DNA of 38,281 nucleotides. It comes from a virus. How positions within the stretch are numbered: the first letter of the stretch is position 1; each line of letters opens with the position of its first letter. The notes beneath the pieces are model-generated. The model ran no database searches. It saw only the letters and a list, made by a program, of their open reading frames with translations, and was not told the DNA's origin. The stretch spans positions 1-38,281 of the IMG/VR virus record IMGVR_UViG_3300030339_000122, one strand, 5' to 3'. Positions 2,153-36,945 of this stretch are shown piece by piece. The position numbers were made by a program, and so were the translations under genes.

Positions 2153-2742
2153 AACAACAAACCTGTAAATACATAGCAGAAGACAGTACTAAGTGCCTCT
2201 CTCTATTCCACACAAAAATGTATCACAACCCACCTAAGCCTATAAAACGAACACCAATAAAGAAACCCGACCATATTGCGGAAGTCCGCAATATGGTTTC
2301 AAAAAGTCATATCGTGGCCGGACACAAAATGGAAATTACTAAGGTTAAGAAACCTAGCAAAAAGAAAACAAAAAGCCGTTCCTACTACGTCAAAAAACTA
2401 GACAGTGTGTTCTCTCAATATATCCGCCAGACATACGCCATAGACGGCCTTACGGCCTGCGTAACCTGCGGAGTGATTAAACCATGGCAAGAACAACAAA
2501 ACGGCCACTACGAATCACGAGGAAATTTGCCTACTAGGTGGAGTGAAGATAACTGCCACCCACAGTGTGTAGCTTGTAACGTGTTTAAAAAAGGTAACTA
2601 CACCGAGTACGCTTTGTGGATGATAGACACTTATGGAGCGGACAAACTGGTTGGTTTAAAGGCGAGAGCTAATAGTAAAGAGAAGATACCGACCTTAGTA
2701 ATAAAAGAAAAAATTGAGTATTATAAGGGGTTATTGAAATAA
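2149..2742 (+). CDS. ninG: NinG/Rap-like recombination protein
   Basis: It resembles lambda NinG (Rap), a structure-specific nuclease that acts on D-loops and Holliday junctions in RecA/Red recombination. The 197 residues comprise a basic N-terminal region of about 80 residues, then LDSVFSQYIRQ, a CVTCG zinc knuckle, QNGHYESRGNLPTRWSEDNCHPQCVACNVFKKGNY with the HNH-like His and Cys residues, and a C-terminal helical part. The Cys pairs CxxC and CxxxCxxC match the NinG zinc-binding pattern. It is the last gene before a promoter and a 410-base noncoding stretch. Together with RecT at the other end of the operon it suggests a phage recombination module, although no partner exonuclease is visible. 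Confidence 0.85.
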   Translation: MKQQTCKYIAEDSTKCLSLFHTKMYHNPPKPIKRTPIKKPDHIAEVRNMVSKSHIVAGHKMEITKVKKPSKKKTKSRSYYVKKLDSVFSQYIRQTYAIDGLTACVTCGVIKPWQEQQNGHYESRGNLPTRWSEDNCHPQCVACNVFKKGNYTEYALWMIDTYGADKLVGLKARANSKEKIPTLVIKEKIEYYKGLLK

Positions 2743-2757
2743 TATAAGCTTTTTCTA

Positions 2758-2786
2758 TTGCATTATTAGCACGACCGTGATATTAT
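2758..2786 (+). promoter_or_regulatory. early promoter P1 with palindromic operator block
   Basis: TTGCAT and TATTAT are 17 bp apart with an extended -10 (TGATATTAT). The last 18 bases, GCACGACCGTGATATTAT at 2769-2786, are identical in two other promoters (4106-4134, 36917-36945). They contain the palindrome CACG-AC-CGTG. Unlike the other copies, the GAAAGGAC ribosome site downstream is not followed by an ATG, so this transcript begins with structured noncoding RNA. Confidence 0.8.
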
Positions 2787-2817
2787 TGAATTAGTCCACA
2801 AGAAAGGACAACGAAGC

Positions 2818-3131
2818 AAAGTCGGCATTCCAGTTGTATATCGCCATCGTGCATACCGACCGACTAGCTTTACCAAATTAACAAACCATTGAGCCGTAGT
2901 AGTGCTGGTAGTAACGTGGACTAGCAGTTGCATATGGATGCCACTCTTAGCAACTGAAAAGGATTGCTACTAGCACCATACGGCTCAATACACACATTAA
3001 CAATTAGAGCGTAATAGTGCTGGTAGTAATCTCGCTCCAGTCCTGTGCAGGGAATGGAGTTCTAAAGGGCGAACTAAATGATGAGCCACTCCGAAGACTG
3101 CATATTGTTACCAGCACCATACGCTCTAATA
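2818..3131 (+). ncRNA. structured leader with twin covarying hairpins
   Basis: This occupies most of the 410-base gap between ninG and the next gene. A small hairpin GTCGG/CCGAC comes first (2821-2825 with 2856-2860). Two homologous long hairpins follow. Element 1 pairs 2889-2898 with 2979-2988 and 2902-2914 with 2964-2976. Element 2 pairs 3004-3013 with 3120-3129 and 3017-3030 with 3104-3117. Both have the same NTA/CA internal loop and the core GTGCTGGTAGTAA, while the outer stems differ at four compensated positions. G-U pairs occur only in the plus-strand reading. The apical parts differ; in element 1 a 7-bp hairpin (2925-2931 with 2950-2956) has a loop that can pair as a pseudoknot (2916-2919 with 2941-2944). 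It may be a long 5' leader or a processed RNA. Confidence 0.7.
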
Positions 3132-3152
3132 CAAAACAGAAAGGGCTATCAC

Positions 3153-3353
3153 ATGCCAAACAAAAAGAACACCGTAGAAGAATTTAAAAAAGAAATTAAC
3201 ATCAAACAACTTAACGCTAACTGGCGCACTTTCCTAGTAATGGTAATCGCTGCAACATTCGTATTTACATGGATTCTGTGTTATTTCACAACCCACGCTC
3301 AAATCATGGAAGCAGCACAACTAGTAAATGAAGTGTCAAAAGTAAGTCAGTAG
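3153..3353 (+). CDS. single-pass membrane protein, probable anchor of the lysozyme-like domain
   Basis: The start MPNKKNTVEEF is preferred because GAAAGGG precedes it; an upstream in-frame ATG (3078) lies inside the twin-hairpin RNA. The 66 residues have a charged N-terminus, one strong membrane span (FLVMVIAATFVFTWILCYF, about residues 27-45) and a short external tail ending in SKVSQ. The stop is immediately followed, in the -1 frame, by a Pro/Thr/Val-rich linker and a lysozyme-like domain. The two parts may therefore be one membrane-anchored enzyme joined by frameshifting, or split by a mutation. Confidence 0.65.
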   Translation: MPNKKNTVEEFKKEINIKQLNANWRTFLVMVIAATFVFTWILCYFTTHAQIMEAAQLVNEVSKVSQ

Positions 3354-3730
3354 AAGCCGTCGCTACTGTTCAACCACCACAGACGGTAACTGAACCAACT
3401 ATTGTGCAAACGCCCGTTACAGAGCCTCTGGTACAGCCAAAAGGTGATTGTATTCTGGTTAACCAGTATGATTGGAATACAAGTATTATGTATGCTATCT
3501 GTATGGCTGAGAGTGGCGGAAACCCCAATGCACTAGGTCATAATAAAAATGGAACTACAGACGGTGGGTTACTTCAAATAAACAGCATCCATGTAAATAG
3601 TGGGCTAATCAGTTCAGAAGATAGGTTTATACCTGAAAAGAACTTAGCTGCTGCGTACGCTATTTACAAGGGTTCTGGCTATAAGGCTTGGAGCAGTTAC
3701 AATTCTGGTGTATATTTAAAGTATCTTTAA
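3332..3730 (+). CDS. lysozyme / lytic-transglycosylase-like domain, start uncertain (possible -1 frameshift product)
   Basis: It contains a lysozyme-superfamily core: ICMAESGGNPNALGHNKNGTTDGGLLQINS with the likely catalytic Glu in AESGG, then a helix and KAWSSYNSG. It would cleave peptidoglycan glycan strands. The open frame begins right after a TGA at 3329-3331 and encodes a Pro/Thr-rich linker before the domain. The only in-frame start before the domain is a GTG at 3404 with no ribosome site. Reading from the upstream membrane protein and slipping -1 at the A-AAA-G at 3338-3342 would give anchor, linker and enzyme in one chain of about 190 residues. That arrangement makes better structural sense than a linker with no start. 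An assembly indel is the main alternative. Confidence 0.6.
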   Translation, partial: SVKSKSVEAVATVQPPQTVTEPTIVQTPVTEPLVQPKGDCILVNQYDWNTSIMYAICMAESGGNPNALGHNKNGTTDGGLLQINSIHVNSGLISSEDRFIPEKNLAAAYAIYKGSGYKAWSSYNSGVYLKYL

Positions 3731-3738
3731 CAACTCGA

Positions 3739-4095
3739 ATGAAGACATGGCGAGATAAATAGCCCGGTTAGAGCAGGTTACACCTGTAAGTGAGGCGCAT
3801 ACAATGGTCGTTCATTGGTTTATCTCGTCTTCATGGGCTATGTAAGTTGAAGCGATTCCGACCATATTTGGTTCACTGCGATATATAAAATAAGCAGTAG
3901 CTTACATAGACCAACGCTACCAACCAGGCTCGCGCCCTCTTCGGTGATTGCATTCACTGGGAATGGTCTGTAACGAGCAAGTAGCATGATATCGTGAATT
4001 GTATCCGAAAGGGTTTGCTCGTTATCTAAACTACTTGCTTCCATGTTTTTGTTGGAGTTACCCCCAAGCACCTGTAAAAAGGTGCTATTTTATTT
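3739..4095 (+). ncRNA. large folded RNA with intrinsic terminator
   Basis: No protein gene fits here. Long perfect pairings include 3751-3759/3819-3827, 3838-3846/3901-3909 (enclosing hairpins 3860-3873 and 3875-3898) and 3971-3980/4015-4024 (enclosing ATCC-GAAA-GGGT, a GNRA-type loop at 4003-4014). A possible closing helix 3741-3750/4041-4050 uses two G-U pairs that exist only on the plus strand. A terminator ends it at 4067-4095. The 77-nt segment 3751-3827 has tRNA-like length and a D-arm-like GGTTAGAGC, but its anticodon and T arms do not fit a tRNA. Two 9-10 bp helices compete for 3976-3980 (see findings). It could be a 3' RNA of the preceding transcript or an independent RNA. Confidence 0.6.
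4067..4095 (+). terminator. intrinsic terminator
   Basis: A 7-bp stem (AGCACCT, loop GTAAAA, AGGTGCT) is followed by ATTTTATTT. The U-rich tail is present only in the plus reading. It separates the structured RNA from the next early promoter. Confidence 0.75.
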
Positions 4096-4105
4096 GCCTA
4101 AACCA

Positions 4106-4134
4106 TTTACATTTTTGCACGACCGTGATATTAT
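4106..4134 (+). promoter_or_regulatory. early promoter P2 with palindromic operator block
   Basis: TTTACA, 17 bp, TATTAT with extended TGA. The block GCACGACCGTGATATTAT (4117-4134) is identical to P1 and P3. The leader has the GAAAGGAC ribosome site, 12 nt before the ATG at 4170. It drives the 4.17-8.5 kb operon of small genes. Confidence 0.8.
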
Positions 4135-4169
4135 TAATACATCAACAAGTCACCGAAAGGACAAGTAAA

Positions 4170-4397
4170 ATGGCAGTACGAAACTCACACGTAAGGCAAT
4201 CAACCAAAGAAGTTTACGCAACACTTGACGGTAAGAAATACAGCCTAACAGCAGAAAATTGGAACGTAAACATGAACAAAGTACGTTATGCAGCGAAGAA
4301 GCTTGAACAAGGCAAGTTATCTATCCCAGTAGACGCTCAAGTTTACTACACGATTACACACTTACAAGTAACAGAAGAAGGAAAGGTGATAGCATAA
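4170..4397 (+). CDS. hypothetical protein (75 aa), first gene of the small-gene operon
   Basis: The start MAVRNSHVRQSTK follows the P2 promoter and a GAAAGGAC site. The product is basic, with a short beta-type start (VYATLDGKKYSLTAENWNVNMNKVRYAAKKLEQG) and ends HLQVTEEGKVIA. As the first gene behind an operator-bearing promoter it could be a regulator, but no helix-turn-helix is evident. TAATG overlap with the next gene. Confidence 0.7.
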   Translation: MAVRNSHVRQSTKEVYATLDGKKYSLTAENWNVNMNKVRYAAKKLEQGKLSIPVDAQVYYTITHLQVTEEGKVIA

Positions 4398-7252: not shown

Positions 7253-7542
7253 ACAAGGAATATATAAAATTAACCTTGCTGAATAATTTCAATACGATAA
7301 TAGGTGATGGTGGAAAGTCGGGTACTTCTAAATATTGGGAAGTTCTCAACGAAAGTGTACTAGGCTCAATGGTTATCAAATCAAAAAGTGGCGTAGCTTA
7401 TATATTTGGGAAAGATGTAGTGGACGAGGTTTGGACTAGCAGCCCAACATTTTTAGTACCAAGCGGAATGATGTTTAAGATAGAAAAAGACTTTAAGCGT
7501 ACATGGTACGGCCGATATTTTAAGGAAGCGAGTAAGCAATGA
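7249..7542 (+). CDS. hypothetical protein (97 aa)
   Basis: Small, mixed alpha/beta (YIKLTLLNNFNTIIGDGGKSGTSKYWEVL, then SGVAYIFGKDVVDEVW). ATGA overlaps on both sides. No known family. Confidence 0.55.
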   Translation: MNKEYIKLTLLNNFNTIIGDGGKSGTSKYWEVLNESVLGSMVIKSKSGVAYIFGKDVVDEVWTSSPTFLVPSGMMFKIEKDFKRTWYGRYFKEASKQ

Positions 7543-7781
7543 ATGATAAACCAGAAAAATTAGTAGTTGTTATTAACGAAAATATAATAGTATCTGTAGT
7601 TAAAGATATTTTTACTTTCGGAATGTTCGCAGGGCTTATGTATTTTAACCACCAATATCTAGATGGAAACGGGTGGATTGACATGGCATTTATACTATTT
7701 GTTTTCTTGTTTCTTACAGCTAGAAGTAGCAAATCAGTATTTAGAGGCACAAAATCAGAAGCAATTAAATGGTTACAATAA
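7539..7781 (+). CDS. small two-span membrane protein (80 aa)
   Basis: Two hydrophobic segments (DIFTFGMFAGLMYF and MAFILFVFLFLTA) are separated by HQYLDGNGWID. This is a common type of uncharacterised small phage membrane protein. It lies far from the lysis cassette, so a holin role is not favoured. Confidence 0.6.
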   Translation: MNDKPEKLVVVINENIIVSVVKDIFTFGMFAGLMYFNHQYLDGNGWIDMAFILFVFLFLTARSSKSVFRGTKSEAIKWLQ

Positions 7782-30323: not shown

Positions 30324-30584
30324 TTATCTCCCTAGTGATTGATTCTTTTTTAGTAGTTCCTGTTCAGCTTCCCACTCAATAAGTTGTGGGGTTTTAGCTT
30401 CTGAAATACCTACAGGCGTACCGTTATCAGTTGTATAGGTAGGCGCATAACTACCGGGAGTGACGCCCGCTTGTGTGATTGTATTAATTTCTAAGTCTTG
30501 AGGTTCATGCTTATATATCTTATATGTGAGAACTGCAATAACACTTAGTACAATGACGATAAGACTCAGCAGTATATCAGTCAT
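30324..30584 (-). CDS. single-span membrane protein (86 aa)
   Basis: N-terminal span ILLSLIVIVLSVIAVLTYKIY (residues about 4-24) followed by a polar tail ending EWEAEQELLKKNQSLGR. It overlaps the end of groEL by 8 nt. A spanin-like or envelope role is possible but unproven. Confidence 0.6.
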   Translation of the reverse strand: MTDILLSLIVIVLSVIAVLTYKIYKHEPQDLEINTITQAGVTPGSYAPTYTTDNGTPVGISEAKTPQLIEWEAEQELLKKNQSLGR

Positions 30585-32136
30585 GTTTTTGTTCGCGGTC
30601 TTTAAAGGTTACTGCTACCGAAGCGGTTATAAGTTTAGCGACAACTGAAGTTGAGTTGCGCACCACTTCTTTAATAACAGACGCCGGGTCAACAACACCA
30701 ACCTTTATCATATCTACAGGTTTGTAGTTAAAGTCTTCATCACGGAGGTTATACCCAAAGCCTGGTTTCGAGTTTAAGACTTTGTAGGCAGCTTGTTCCG
30801 TGTTATAGCCAGCATTATCTACAAGAGTTTTAAATGGAGCCTTGAAAGCTTCGCCAAAGTATTCAGATTTAGAGCGAAGAAGAACAGTACCACCGCCGGG
30901 AACAATACCACCATCTAAAGCAGCACGTACGGCTGAAATAGCGTCATCGGCACGTAGCTTGACTTCAACCTGTTCAACCTCTGTAGCCCCACCAACACGG
31001 ATAATAGCAACCTTACCGGTTAGCTTTGAAATACGGTCATGTAATGCTTCTCGAGTTCCCTGTGATTCAGATTCAGCCAGTTGTTGGCGTAGGTCATTAA
31101 TACGCTTTTGGGCAACGTCTGATTGACCCTGAGCACCAATAATAGTTGTCTCAAGTTCATTGATGATTACCTTATCAGCACCGCCAAGCATATCTTTAGT
31201 AAATGAGTTAGGATTAGCGCCAATAGTAAGAACTTGGCCACCAGTCACGATTGCAATGTCTTCAAGGAACAATGAACGCATTGGGCCAGAATTAGGAACG
31301 TCTACTACAGTTGCGTTCAAGACACCCTTTAACTTATTAAGAATAAGAGTAGCAAGTGCTTCTTCTTGCACATCGGCAATTATAACTACTTCAGCGCCCT
31401 GGTTGCCACCTTCAATAATCTTACCGATTAATGGGGTAATGTCGGCAGCGGTTCGAAGGGGTTTATCAGAGATAAGAATATCAACGTCTTCATGTACCGA
31501 TTGCACGGCCGTTGGGTCATTAATAAGATTGACGTGCGTAAAGCCCCGGCGGAAATAAAGACCCTTAACAAGTTCGGAGTAAGTGCCCGAACCAGCAAAA
31601 TCCTCTACAATAACACCGCCATCAAGCCCAACTGCACCAATTACATCGGCAATTAGATGGCCTAATGCTTCGTCGCCAGCTGATACAACTGCTACGTGCT
31701 TTAGTAATTTGGAATCAACATCAATTTTAATTTTATCAATCTGTGCAATAATTTCTAAAGCAGTTTTTTCAAGCATCTTTGCTACTTGCATACGATTGTA
31801 GCCAGCACCAATAAGTTTCCGTGCTTCTTTATAAAGGTTACGAGCCAAGATAACTACAGCAGTAGTACCATCGCCTACCTTAGTATTGTTTTTCTTAGAG
31901 GCCTGTACGATTGTCCGAGCAGCCATATTTTCTACAGCGTCTTCAAGATAAACATTCTTTACGTTCGTAACACCATCACGGCTAATCATTGGGTCGCCAT
32001 AAGGAAGCTCTAGGATTGCGTTACCCGCACCCGGCCCATAAGCAGCTTTAGCAACCTTATATATAGCCTCAACACCACGGGCAATTTTTGCATCTAATTC
32101 TTCATCTGAAATAACTTCACGTACTTGTTTACTCAC
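30577..32136 (-). CDS. groEL: GroEL-type chaperonin
   Basis: It is the 60-kDa chaperonin subunit that folds proteins with GroES in an ATP-driven double ring. The start is a GTG (VSKQVREVISDEEL) with GAGG upstream, inside the end of groES. The 519 residues show group I signatures: AYGPGAGNAILE, ISRDGVTNVKNVYLED, NTKVGDGTTAVVILARNLYKEA (ATP site), AVVSAGDEALGHLIADVIGAVGLDGGVIVED, DDAISAVRAALDGGIVPGGGTVLLR. It lacks the Gly-Met-rich C-terminal tail and is about 25 residues shorter than typical GroEL. A phage copy probably helps fold its own capsid or tail proteins or replaces a host chaperonin under stress. Confidence 0.95.
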   Translation of the reverse strand: MSKQVREVISDEELDAKIARGVEAIYKVAKAAYGPGAGNAILELPYGDPMISRDGVTNVKNVYLEDAVENMAARTIVQASKKNNTKVGDGTTAVVILARNLYKEARKLIGAGYNRMQVAKMLEKTALEIIAQIDKIKIDVDSKLLKHVAVVSAGDEALGHLIADVIGAVGLDGGVIVEDFAGSGTYSELVKGLYFRRGFTHVNLINDPTAVQSVHEDVDILISDKPLRTAADITPLIGKIIEGGNQGAEVVIIADVQEEALATLILNKLKGVLNATVVDVPNSGPMRSLFLEDIAIVTGGQVLTIGANPNSFTKDMLGGADKVIINELETTIIGAQGQSDVAQKRINDLRQQLAESESQGTREALHDRISKLTGKVAIIRVGGATEVEQVEVKLRADDAISAVRAALDGGIVPGGGTVLLRSKSEYFGEAFKAPFKTLVDNAGYNTEQAAYKVLNSKPGFGYNLRDEDFNYKPVDMIKVGVVDPASVIKEVVRNSTSVVAKLITASVAVTFKDREQKHD

Positions 32137-32392
32137 TCTTATAACCTCGAATATCATTAATATCAATAAAGGCAAATATCTTATCGCCGTCTTTTACTTG
32201 AGAGTCATCCTTGAAACCCTCAAAGTATATTTTGCTTCCGATTGGAGGTAGGTCTTTAGCGTCTTCATCAGTTACTTTTAATAATATGCCACTTGTCTTT
32301 GTGTCATACTTTTTTTCTACTGTGTAGACTCCTTCCCATTCTTCCGTTAGTTCAACTAATACGTTTCCGTTCATAGGTAAGAGATTTATCAT
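32129..32392 (-). CDS. groES: GroES co-chaperonin
   Basis: The 87 residues start MINLLPMNGNVLVELTEEWEGVYTVEKKY, continuing KTSGILLKVTDEDAKDLPPIGSKIYFEGF, GDKIFAFIDINDIRGY. The LLPMNGNVLVE start and SGILL mobile-loop anchor match GroES. It would cap the GroEL ring. The start is set by a leaderless promoter with TACAAT 6 nt upstream of ATG. The end overlaps the groEL start by 8 nt, ensuring coupled expression. Unlike some phage co-chaperonins (such as T4 gp31), this phage carries both partners. Confidence 0.9.
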   Translation of the reverse strand: MINLLPMNGNVLVELTEEWEGVYTVEKKYDTKTSGILLKVTDEDAKDLPPIGSKIYFEGFKDDSQVKDGDKIFAFIDINDIRGYKSE

Positions 32393-35700: not shown

Positions 35701-35774
35701 TATATTTTAGTATTGATAGTCTGAATGTTAGGTATTTCACATAAAAACAATAAAATAAACTTATATTTTAGTAT
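35701..35774. repeat. pair of 13-bp AT-rich direct repeats
   Basis: TATATTTTAGTAT occurs at 35701-35713 and 35762-35774 in the AT-richest part of the noncoding region. It could be a replication or binding site, or part of the 3' end of RNA E. Nothing decides between these. Confidence 0.4.
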
Positions 35775-36333
35775 ACCTTTAATAGTCCCTATTTTTTGAA
35801 CGTAACCGCTCAGGGGGACTCTGACATGTGCGAGGTGTTCAATTCATGGAGCGATGCTCTTGGACATTGATAAGCCTTGCTGTTGTGTATTCCCCTGTTC
35901 TGGTAGCGACATCAATGTCGGAACCAAATGGGTATTGAAGGTATGTGAGAGGGTACTGGTGTGTTGTCGCTTCACTCCCACTCTACGAATTTGGCTTGCG
36001 GACTGGATACCGTTGTCCTACCGTGTTACTCAGGATTGCTCCTTTTAGTAGTTCCCCCACAGTTACCTTCAATTGTTATAGACAGAAATGGAGCTGGGCG
36101 ACTGTGTGAGGTAAGGATTTCATAATCGCTAATGTTGCGATTATTGCTAGCTTTCCCGCCTCAGAGTAAGCACTCCCCATTGCCATCTATAACTATACTT
36201 AATTGTTAAGGTAAAAGTGGTCATTGACGCACCTCCTGTACCACAAGCCGTACAGGTAGCCATGTTCCTTTTATTTACTTGGCTCTTTTACGTCCCCAAG
36301 TCGGTGCAGGAAACCGTCCCTAGACTGAACATA

Positions 36334-36458
36334 AGAAAAACGCCCGGTTAGGGGCGTTCCATAGTCATCTGTCATATATTATTATAGACAAGATTAATAA
36401 GAATGCAAGCCCCTACGCTTGTTTTAATAGCAAGTCATTTTTGACAGATGACGAGCTA
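36334..36458 (-). ncRNA. small RNA D
   Basis: Consensus-like promoter TTGTAA, 17 bp, TATAAT (36465-36493) gives a start near 36458. The RNA of about 125 nt has a perfect 11-bp stem (36442-36452 with 36364-36374) enclosing a hairpin CAAGC/GCTTG. It ends with terminator AACGCCC/GGGCGTT plus five U at 36336-36358. The promoter of RNA E lies in its central loop region. Confidence 0.65.
36336..36358 (-). terminator. leftward terminator of RNA D
   Basis: 7-bp GC-rich stem (36339-36345 with 36352-36358) and TTTTTCTT in the leftward reading only. It also lies in the first 40 nt of the proposed RNA E transcript, repeating the promoter-hairpin order of the late genes. Confidence 0.7.
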
Positions 36459-36916: not shown

Positions 36917-36945
36917 TTTCTTTTTTTGCACGACCGTGATATTAT
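36917..36945 (+). promoter_or_regulatory. early promoter P3 with palindromic operator block
   Basis: Weak -35 TTTCTT, 17 bp, TATTAT with extended TGA. The block GCACGACCGTGATATTAT (36928-36945) is identical to P1 and P2. Leader with GAAAGGAC leads to the recT start at 36979. Confidence 0.8.

What the first reader, a model, noticed from the sequence alone, without database searches (positions are those of the whole stretch)
3739..4095. Folded RNA with mutually exclusive helices and a tRNA-like module
Two perfect helices compete for 3976-3980: 3971-3980/4015-4024 and 3976-3984/4031-4039. A further pair of alternatives uses 3741-3745, which can join 3828-3832 or 4046-4050. Such switching is the hallmark of riboswitches and attenuators, yet no gene start follows; a terminator does. 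The 77-nt module 3751-3827 has a 9-bp acceptor-like stem and a GGTTAGAGC D-arm remnant but fails as a tRNA.
Basis: partly seen in the sequence, partly recalled or inferred. Interest (0 to 1): 0.75.

Follow-up and report, generated by a model that had tools for sequence, protein, structure and literature searches.

The report
New folded RNA beside phage lysis genes
A bacterial virus from environmental DNA makes an elaborately folded, non-protein-coding RNA of about 320 bases right after its cell-lysis genes; a relative keeps the same fold with different letters, so it is a real and apparently undescribed RNA, but it is not the molecular switch first suspected.

Summary
The segment is a real structured RNA: fold z -4.8, and four perfect helices of at least 9 bp against 0.19 expected. 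It is not a riboswitch or attenuator. A syntenic phage (L024) has the same RNA between the same lysozyme gene and a terminator. Both sequences fold on their own into one layout: a long closing helix, an acceptor-like arm, an identical UCUUCA linker, a second arm and the 9-bp helix 'B'. All 41 shared pairs are kept, 13 by changes on both sides. A second relative (L061) lacks the RNA, and its terminator overlaps the lysozyme stop codon. So the RNA is an accessory domain between lysozyme and terminator. The tRNA-like module is a near-miss tRNA-Leu cloverleaf (0.4% of shuffles do as well), not conserved in L024. No Rfam family matches. I propose a structured phage ncRNA made with the lysis mRNA; acting in trans is inferred, function untested. 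In passing: a second RNA family, tandem leader hairpins at 2882-3137, has 11 members and strong covariation.

The parts
3738..3750 (+). closing helix, 5' arm (AATGAAGACATGG)
   Evidence: pairs 4041-4053 in the MFE; 13/13 pairs kept in L024, 4 changed on both sides
3751..3827 (+). module 1: acceptor-like arm, stem 3751-3760/3818-3827
   Evidence: P 0.999; 9/9 compared pairs kept in L024, 4 changed on both sides
3754..3826 (+). degenerate tRNA-Leu(AAG)-like cloverleaf inside module 1
   Evidence: ARAGORN at 90-91% of default threshold; only such call in the window at 90%; 8/2000 shuffles; not found in L024's module 1
3828..3833 (+). junction linker TCTTCA, identical in L024 (7403-7408)
3834..3913 (+). 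module 2: second arm, stem 3834-3848/3899-3913
   Evidence: MFE; 11/11 compared pairs kept in L024, 4 changed on both sides
3914..3975 (+). extra hairpin domain absent from L024 (lineage-specific insertion)
   Evidence: MFE helices 3923-3926/3964-3967 and 3942-3947/3954-3959; L024 has module 2 and helix B adjacent
3976..4039 (+). helix B arm, stem 3976-3984/4031-4039: the conserved one of the two competing helices
   Evidence: P 0.998; 8/8 compared pairs kept in L024, one A-U to U-A
3971..4024 (+). helix A, 3971-3980/4015-4024: transient alternative to B, not conserved
   Evidence: P 0.0007 in full RNA, about 1 in transcripts ending near 4030; no counterpart in L024
4041..4053 (+). closing helix, 3' arm (CCATGTTTTTGTT)
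   Evidence: see 3738-3750
4067..4095 (+). intrinsic terminator AGCACCT-GTAAAA-AGGTGCT and T-rich tail
   Evidence: equivalents in L024 7631-7656 and in L061 overlapping the lysozyme stop codon
3332..3730 (+). SLT-type lysozyme frame just upstream; the RNA begins 8 nt after its stop codon
   Evidence: Pfam SLT_3 and SLT; frame limits
3153..3353 (+). small protein with one apparent membrane segment, first gene of the operon
   Evidence: translation, read by eye; syntenic in L024 and L061
2758..2786 (+). promoter of the lysis operon, TTGCAT-17-TATTAT, with the CACGACCGTGA spacer shared by three promoters
   Evidence: hexamers read by eye
2882..3137 (+). two tandem leader hairpins of a separate covarying RNA family, at the 5' end of the same operon
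   Evidence: z -7.15; covariation and 11 members
4106..4134 (+). promoter of the next operon (TTTACA-17-TATTAT)

Best explanation
3738-4053 is a conserved structured non-coding RNA domain of a phage, transcribed from the plus strand as the 3' part of the lysis-operon transcript (promoter 2758 - leader hairpins - membrane protein - SLT lysozyme - RNA - terminator 4067-4095). It folds into a compact multi-arm junction closed by a 13-bp helix. Shown by sequence: position, fold, covariation, presence in one relative and absence from another. Inferred: the RNA is processed out or persists as a stable RNA of about 320-350 nt late in infection and acts in trans as a folded scaffold or binding partner, the tRNA-like arm being one variable docking module. 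Helix A is a short-lived folding intermediate that B displaces within about 15 nt of further transcription; it is not a sensor.
For: Fold z -4.8 here and -6.2 in the homologue, each folded independently to the same four-helix layout. 41/41 compared pairs kept, 13 changed on both sides; sliding the partners drops pairing to 26-42%. Linker UCUUCA identical. Synteny NinG - leader hairpin(s) - membrane protein - SLT - RNA - terminator in window and L024. L061 shares the operon but its terminator overlaps the SLT stop, with no RNA, so the RNA is a separable accessory domain. In L024 no ORF of 50 aa or more overlaps the RNA. G-U pairs in the closing helix and the lower plus-strand energy (-119.6 against -105.6) favour the plus strand.
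Against: Only two homologues. The layout was read from their own folds, loops were trimmed by hand before pairs were counted, and a model built from the pair finds the full window RNA only weakly (20 bits, E 0.03). No transcript data. Nothing shows release from the mRNA or action in trans; a role in cis on the lysis mRNA fits the same facts. Absence from L061 means it is dispensable at least there.
Confidence: 0.5

Rival explanations
1. Cis-acting 3'-UTR element: the tight closed fold, together with the 5' leader hairpins, protects or processes the lysis mRNA and so sets the level and timing of lysozyme.
For: It always lies between the SLT stop codon and the terminator where present; leader hairpins sit at the other end of the same operon.
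Against: A terminator hairpin alone would give 3' protection, and L061 manages with that; conservation of a specific multi-arm layout and of the UCUUCA linker suggests a more specific role.
Confidence: 0.27
2. Riboswitch, attenuator or other ligand-driven switch using the helix A/B and 3741 alternatives.
For: Two perfect overlapping helices, seen in only 0.2% of shuffles; A forms first and is displaced by B in growing transcripts.
Against: L024 lacks helix A and the 3741/3828 pairing while keeping B and the closing helix. Neither helix overlaps the terminator stem, and the next gene has its own promoter.
Confidence: 0.04
3. Decayed tRNA gene(s) or attachment-site remnant without present function.
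For: 3754-3826 is a near-miss tRNA-Leu(AAG); the leader hairpin of L024 encloses another near-tRNA with a proper T-arm.
Against: Covariation in helices outside any tRNA fold; L024's module 1 is not tRNA-like at any tested threshold but keeps its stem by compensatory changes; decay does not preserve 41/41 pairs.
Confidence: 0.08
4. A DNA-level or mobile element (recombination site, intron-like insertion) that landed in the terminator loop behind the lysozyme gene.
For: Presence/absence between relatives and a sharp end of DNA similarity at window 3731; the L061 terminator halves resemble the sequences flanking the window RNA.
Against: No Rfam intron or ribozyme match even at E 10; the closing helix uses G-U pairs, which are mismatches on the other DNA strand, and the covariation is at RNA level.
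Confidence: 0.08

Closest known systems
GOLLD RNA (phage/prophage large ornate RNA)
   Same: Phage-encoded large structured RNA with tRNA sequences sometimes inside it; function unknown; raised expression during lysis (PMC12286853)
   Different: GOLLD is often over 800 nt with its own conserved 3' domain; this RNA is about 320 nt and does not match any Rfam model
ROOL RNA
   Same: Phage/prophage non-coding RNA with several arms, often near tRNA islands (PMC12286853)
   Different: The solved ROOL is 659 nt with several pseudoknots (PMC12286853); no Rfam match here, and no tRNA gene in the window
tRNA / pseudo-tRNA genes of phages
   Same: Module 3754-3826 folds as a cloverleaf close to ARAGORN's threshold
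   Different: Short D-stem, mismatched anticodon stem and 6-nt T-loop; embedded in a larger covarying RNA; not tRNA-like in the homologue
Riboswitches and transcription attenuators
   Same: Two alternative helices that share bases
   Different: Located in a 3' UTR; terminator not part of the alternatives; alternatives not conserved

Membership tests
Riboswitch / attenuator | mutually exclusive helices conserved among homologues | tested here: not met
   L024 keeps B and the closing helix only; no perfect helix of 6 bp or more competes for B's 5' arm there
Riboswitch / attenuator | sits in a 5' leader and controls the downstream gene through terminator or start codon | tested here: not met
   Lies between SLT stop and terminator; next gene has its own promoter at 4106-4134
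Riboswitch / attenuator | ligand-dependent change of structure | not testable with these tools
   needs SHAPE or in-line probing
tRNA | passes a tRNA gene finder at default threshold | tested here: not met
   ARAGORN 0 genes at default; called only at 91% of threshold or below
tRNA | tRNA fold conserved in the homologue | tested here: not met
   No call in L024 7300-7660 down to 50% of threshold
GOLLD / ROOL | match to the Rfam covariance model | tested here: not met
   Whole window at gathering threshold: 0 matches; 2700-4200 at E 10: 0 matches
GOLLD / ROOL | homo-oligomeric cage | not testable with these tools
   needs cryo-EM or native gels
tmRNA, RNase P RNA, group I or II intron, known ribozymes | match to the Rfam model or ARAGORN tmRNA search | tested here: not met
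   none

The most novel reading that the evidence does not exclude
These phages, probably of Saccharibacteria, carry a lysis-operon RNA system with no described counterpart: conserved leader hairpins around an invariant GUA-loop-GUG/CAC-loop-UAC core at the 5' end and a junction RNA with exchangeable tRNA-mimic modules at the 3' end, which act in trans on a host factor that reads tRNA-like folds.
Probability: 0.15. Interest if true: 0.8.

Novelty: new variant of a known kind. Interest (0 to 1): 0.52.

Why it matters
It adds an apparently undescribed family, supported by covariation, to the short list of large structured phage RNAs whose jobs are unknown. It lies in a defined operon (lysis), in phages of a poorly studied group with at least one naturally RNA-lacking relative. 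That makes the question 'what do big phage RNAs do?' testable by presence/absence comparison. The associated leader hairpin family is more widespread and gives a precise motif to search for.

Tried and rejected
Switch hypothesis: rejected on homologue evidence. Near-identical DNA in IMG/VR by helix pattern or promoter pattern: none. The nine terminase relatives: share virion genes, lack this operon. 379 Patescibacteria genomes: by BLAST of the RNA only scattered short matches at E 0.001-0.1, taken as chance; by R2 model nothing. INPHARED phages: by window DNA, by L024 RNA and by RecT nothing. RecT relatives other than G394 (L067-L071): no leader hairpin and no R2 match. The large RNA-rich stretches of L039, L042 and L043 fold well but I could not align them with this RNA. 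Host: the leader hairpin in one Saccharibacteria assembly (L043) and an SLT protein 53% identical in a genome of that phylum hint at Saccharibacteria; RecT gave nothing there, so the host is not settled. MAFFT of the two full RNAs misaligned the arms, so arms were anchored on the independent folds.

Full report
What the window is. The 38,281-base window is one IMG/VR phage record. Its proteins include terminase, portal, major capsid, a GroEL, RecT, NinG, an MT-A70 methylase and an SLT lysozyme. The nearest catalogued terminase is below 50% identical, from Flavobacterium phages. Sigma-70-like promoters with a shared CACGACCGTGA spacer occur three times: 2758-2786, 4106-4134 and 36917-36945. The finding lies in one transcription unit: promoter 2758, two leader hairpins (2882-3137), a small protein with a membrane segment (3153-3353), the SLT lysozyme frame (3332-3730), the RNA (3738-4053) and a terminator (4067-4095). 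The next gene (4170-4397) has its own promoter.

Checking the observation. The 366-nt segment folds at -119.6 kcal/mol against -95.2 +/- 5.1 for shuffles, z -4.8; the two strands of the 366-nt window starting at 3735 rank second and third of 206 in the genome scan. Four perfect Watson-Crick helices of at least 9 bp occur; 2000 shuffles average 0.19, none reaches four, and an overlapping (mutually exclusive) pair occurs in 0.2%.

Thermodynamics. In the full RNA helix B (3976-3984/4031-4039) has probability 0.998, helix A (3971-3980/4015-4024) 0.0007, and forcing A costs 5.4 kcal/mol. Growing transcripts form A when they end near 4030 and lose it for B at 4040. The pairing 3741-3745/3828-3832 likewise gives way to the closing helix at 4050. 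These are predictions for single strands at 37 C. They show an ordered folding path and need no ligand.

Homologues. A search with the lysozyme protein found L061, from a 35.5-kb phage contig (G394), with lysozyme 68%, RecT 88% and NinG 43% identical, two leader hairpins and the same gene order. There the terminator stem overlaps the lysozyme stop codon and no RNA is present. DNA similarity ends at window 3731. The NinG search had brought in L024, from the same metagenome. It has NinG, a leader hairpin, the membrane protein, an SLT-like lysozyme frame, then a 256-nt RNA (7307-7562) and a terminator. The L024 RNA folds with z -6.2.

Same fold. Folded independently, window and L024 give the same order: closing helix, module 1 stem with no bases between, linker TCTTCA (identical), module 2 stem, helix B stem, then 1-2 bases and the closing strand. 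Of 41 pairs compared, 41 are standard in both; 13 differ on both sides (closing 4, module 1 4, module 2 4, B 1) and 2 on one side. Sliding the 3' partners by 1-3 columns drops pairing to 26-42%. Caveats: two sequences, loops trimmed by hand, and pairs taken from each sequence's own fold, which raises the paired fraction; the both-sides changes are the informative part. A covariance model from these arms finds L024 at 78 bits but the full window RNA only at 20 bits, E 0.03, probably because of the window's extra 62-nt hairpin domain (3914-3975) and trimmed loops.

What is not conserved. L024 has no helix competing with B: without B its arm finds only a 5-bp helix, whereas in the window A takes over. 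The 3741-3745 GAAGA that could pair with TCTTC is absent from L024, while TCTTC itself stays as an unpaired junction linker.

tRNA likeness. ARAGORN finds no tRNA at default. At 90-91% of threshold it calls 3754-3826 tRNA-Leu(AAG), the only call in the window at 90%; 8 of 2000 shuffles do as well. So the resemblance exceeds chance, but the module in L024 is not tRNA-like even at 50%. L024's leader hairpin instead encloses a near-tRNA with a TTCGAAT T-loop and an 8-nt anticodon loop, and at 90% a near-tRNA is also called in the RNA-rich stretch of L039. tRNA-like modules therefore seem to come and go in these RNAs. That is an impression, not a tested claim.

Mechanism. I rank first a structured phage RNA made with the lysis transcript and acting as a stable folded RNA; second a cis-acting 3'-UTR element. 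Position, fold and covariation are shown; release and action in trans are inferred. GOLLD and ROOL are the closest kind (phage-encoded, ornate, sometimes with tRNAs inside or near, unknown function; PMC12286853), but no Rfam family matches, so it is not filed under them. The literature searches on Saccharibacteria phages, structured phage RNAs with tRNA-like parts, and GOLLD/ROOL returned no paper that I recognised as describing this RNA; subscription papers are mostly not held.

Side finding. The leader hairpins form their own family. An alignment of 8 gives 24 pairs, 8 with changes on both sides. Adding L061 (two) and L024 makes 11, with invariant GUA..GUG / CAC..UAC around a small asymmetric loop and outer pairs that occur as up to four standard pair types. 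Members were found by exact motif patterns or in syntenic loci, so the sampling is biased towards similarity; the L024 member is assigned by position and by eye, since the model R1 does not find it. They occur in unrelated phage contigs and one Saccharibacteria assembly contig and in no other of 379 genomes of that phylum.

Noticed in passing
window 2882-2996 and 2997-3137; L039-L044, L061 (two), L024 6551-6664: Tandem leader hairpins of an RNA family with no Rfam match: invariant GUA-[3 nt]-GUG...CAC-[1-2 nt]-UAC core, covarying flanking helices, variable loops; 11 members in different phages and one Saccharibacteria assembly. Position behind promoters invites comparison with antiterminator or leader RNAs.
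   Followed up: partly
window 3332-3353; L061 4905-4929; L024 6864-6891: In all three phages the SLT lysozyme frame overlaps the upstream membrane-protein frame by 22-28 nt in the -1 frame, has no ATG near its beginning, and the overlap holds an A-AAA stretch before the stop: a candidate -1 frameshift making a membrane-anchored lysozyme.
   Followed up: partly
window 2758-2786, 4106-4134, 36917-36945: Three promoters share an identical 17-base block CACGACCGTGATATTAT (near-palindromic spacer plus -10), likely a common regulator site; no exact match in the other IMG/VR contigs searched.
   Followed up: partly
window 35770-36370: Non-coding stretch of about 600 nt with a strong fold (z -3.9) and a minus-strand terminator-like site at 36360-36337: possibly another large RNA; strand unresolved.
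   Followed up: no
L042 1480-2575, L039 (reverse strand) 1000-1680, L043 5930-6500: Contigs with the leader hairpin also carry long stretches of strongly folding non-coding sequence (z -4 to -6 for most), some with tRNA-like pieces.
   Followed up: partly
window 30577-32175 (minus strand): Phage-encoded GroEL-type chaperonin (PHROG 5725, E 1e-104).
   Followed up: no
window ends; L061 1007-5310: In L061 RecT lies shortly before NinG on the same stretch, whereas in the window they sit at opposite ends, so the window is probably a circularly permuted, near-complete genome.
   Followed up: no
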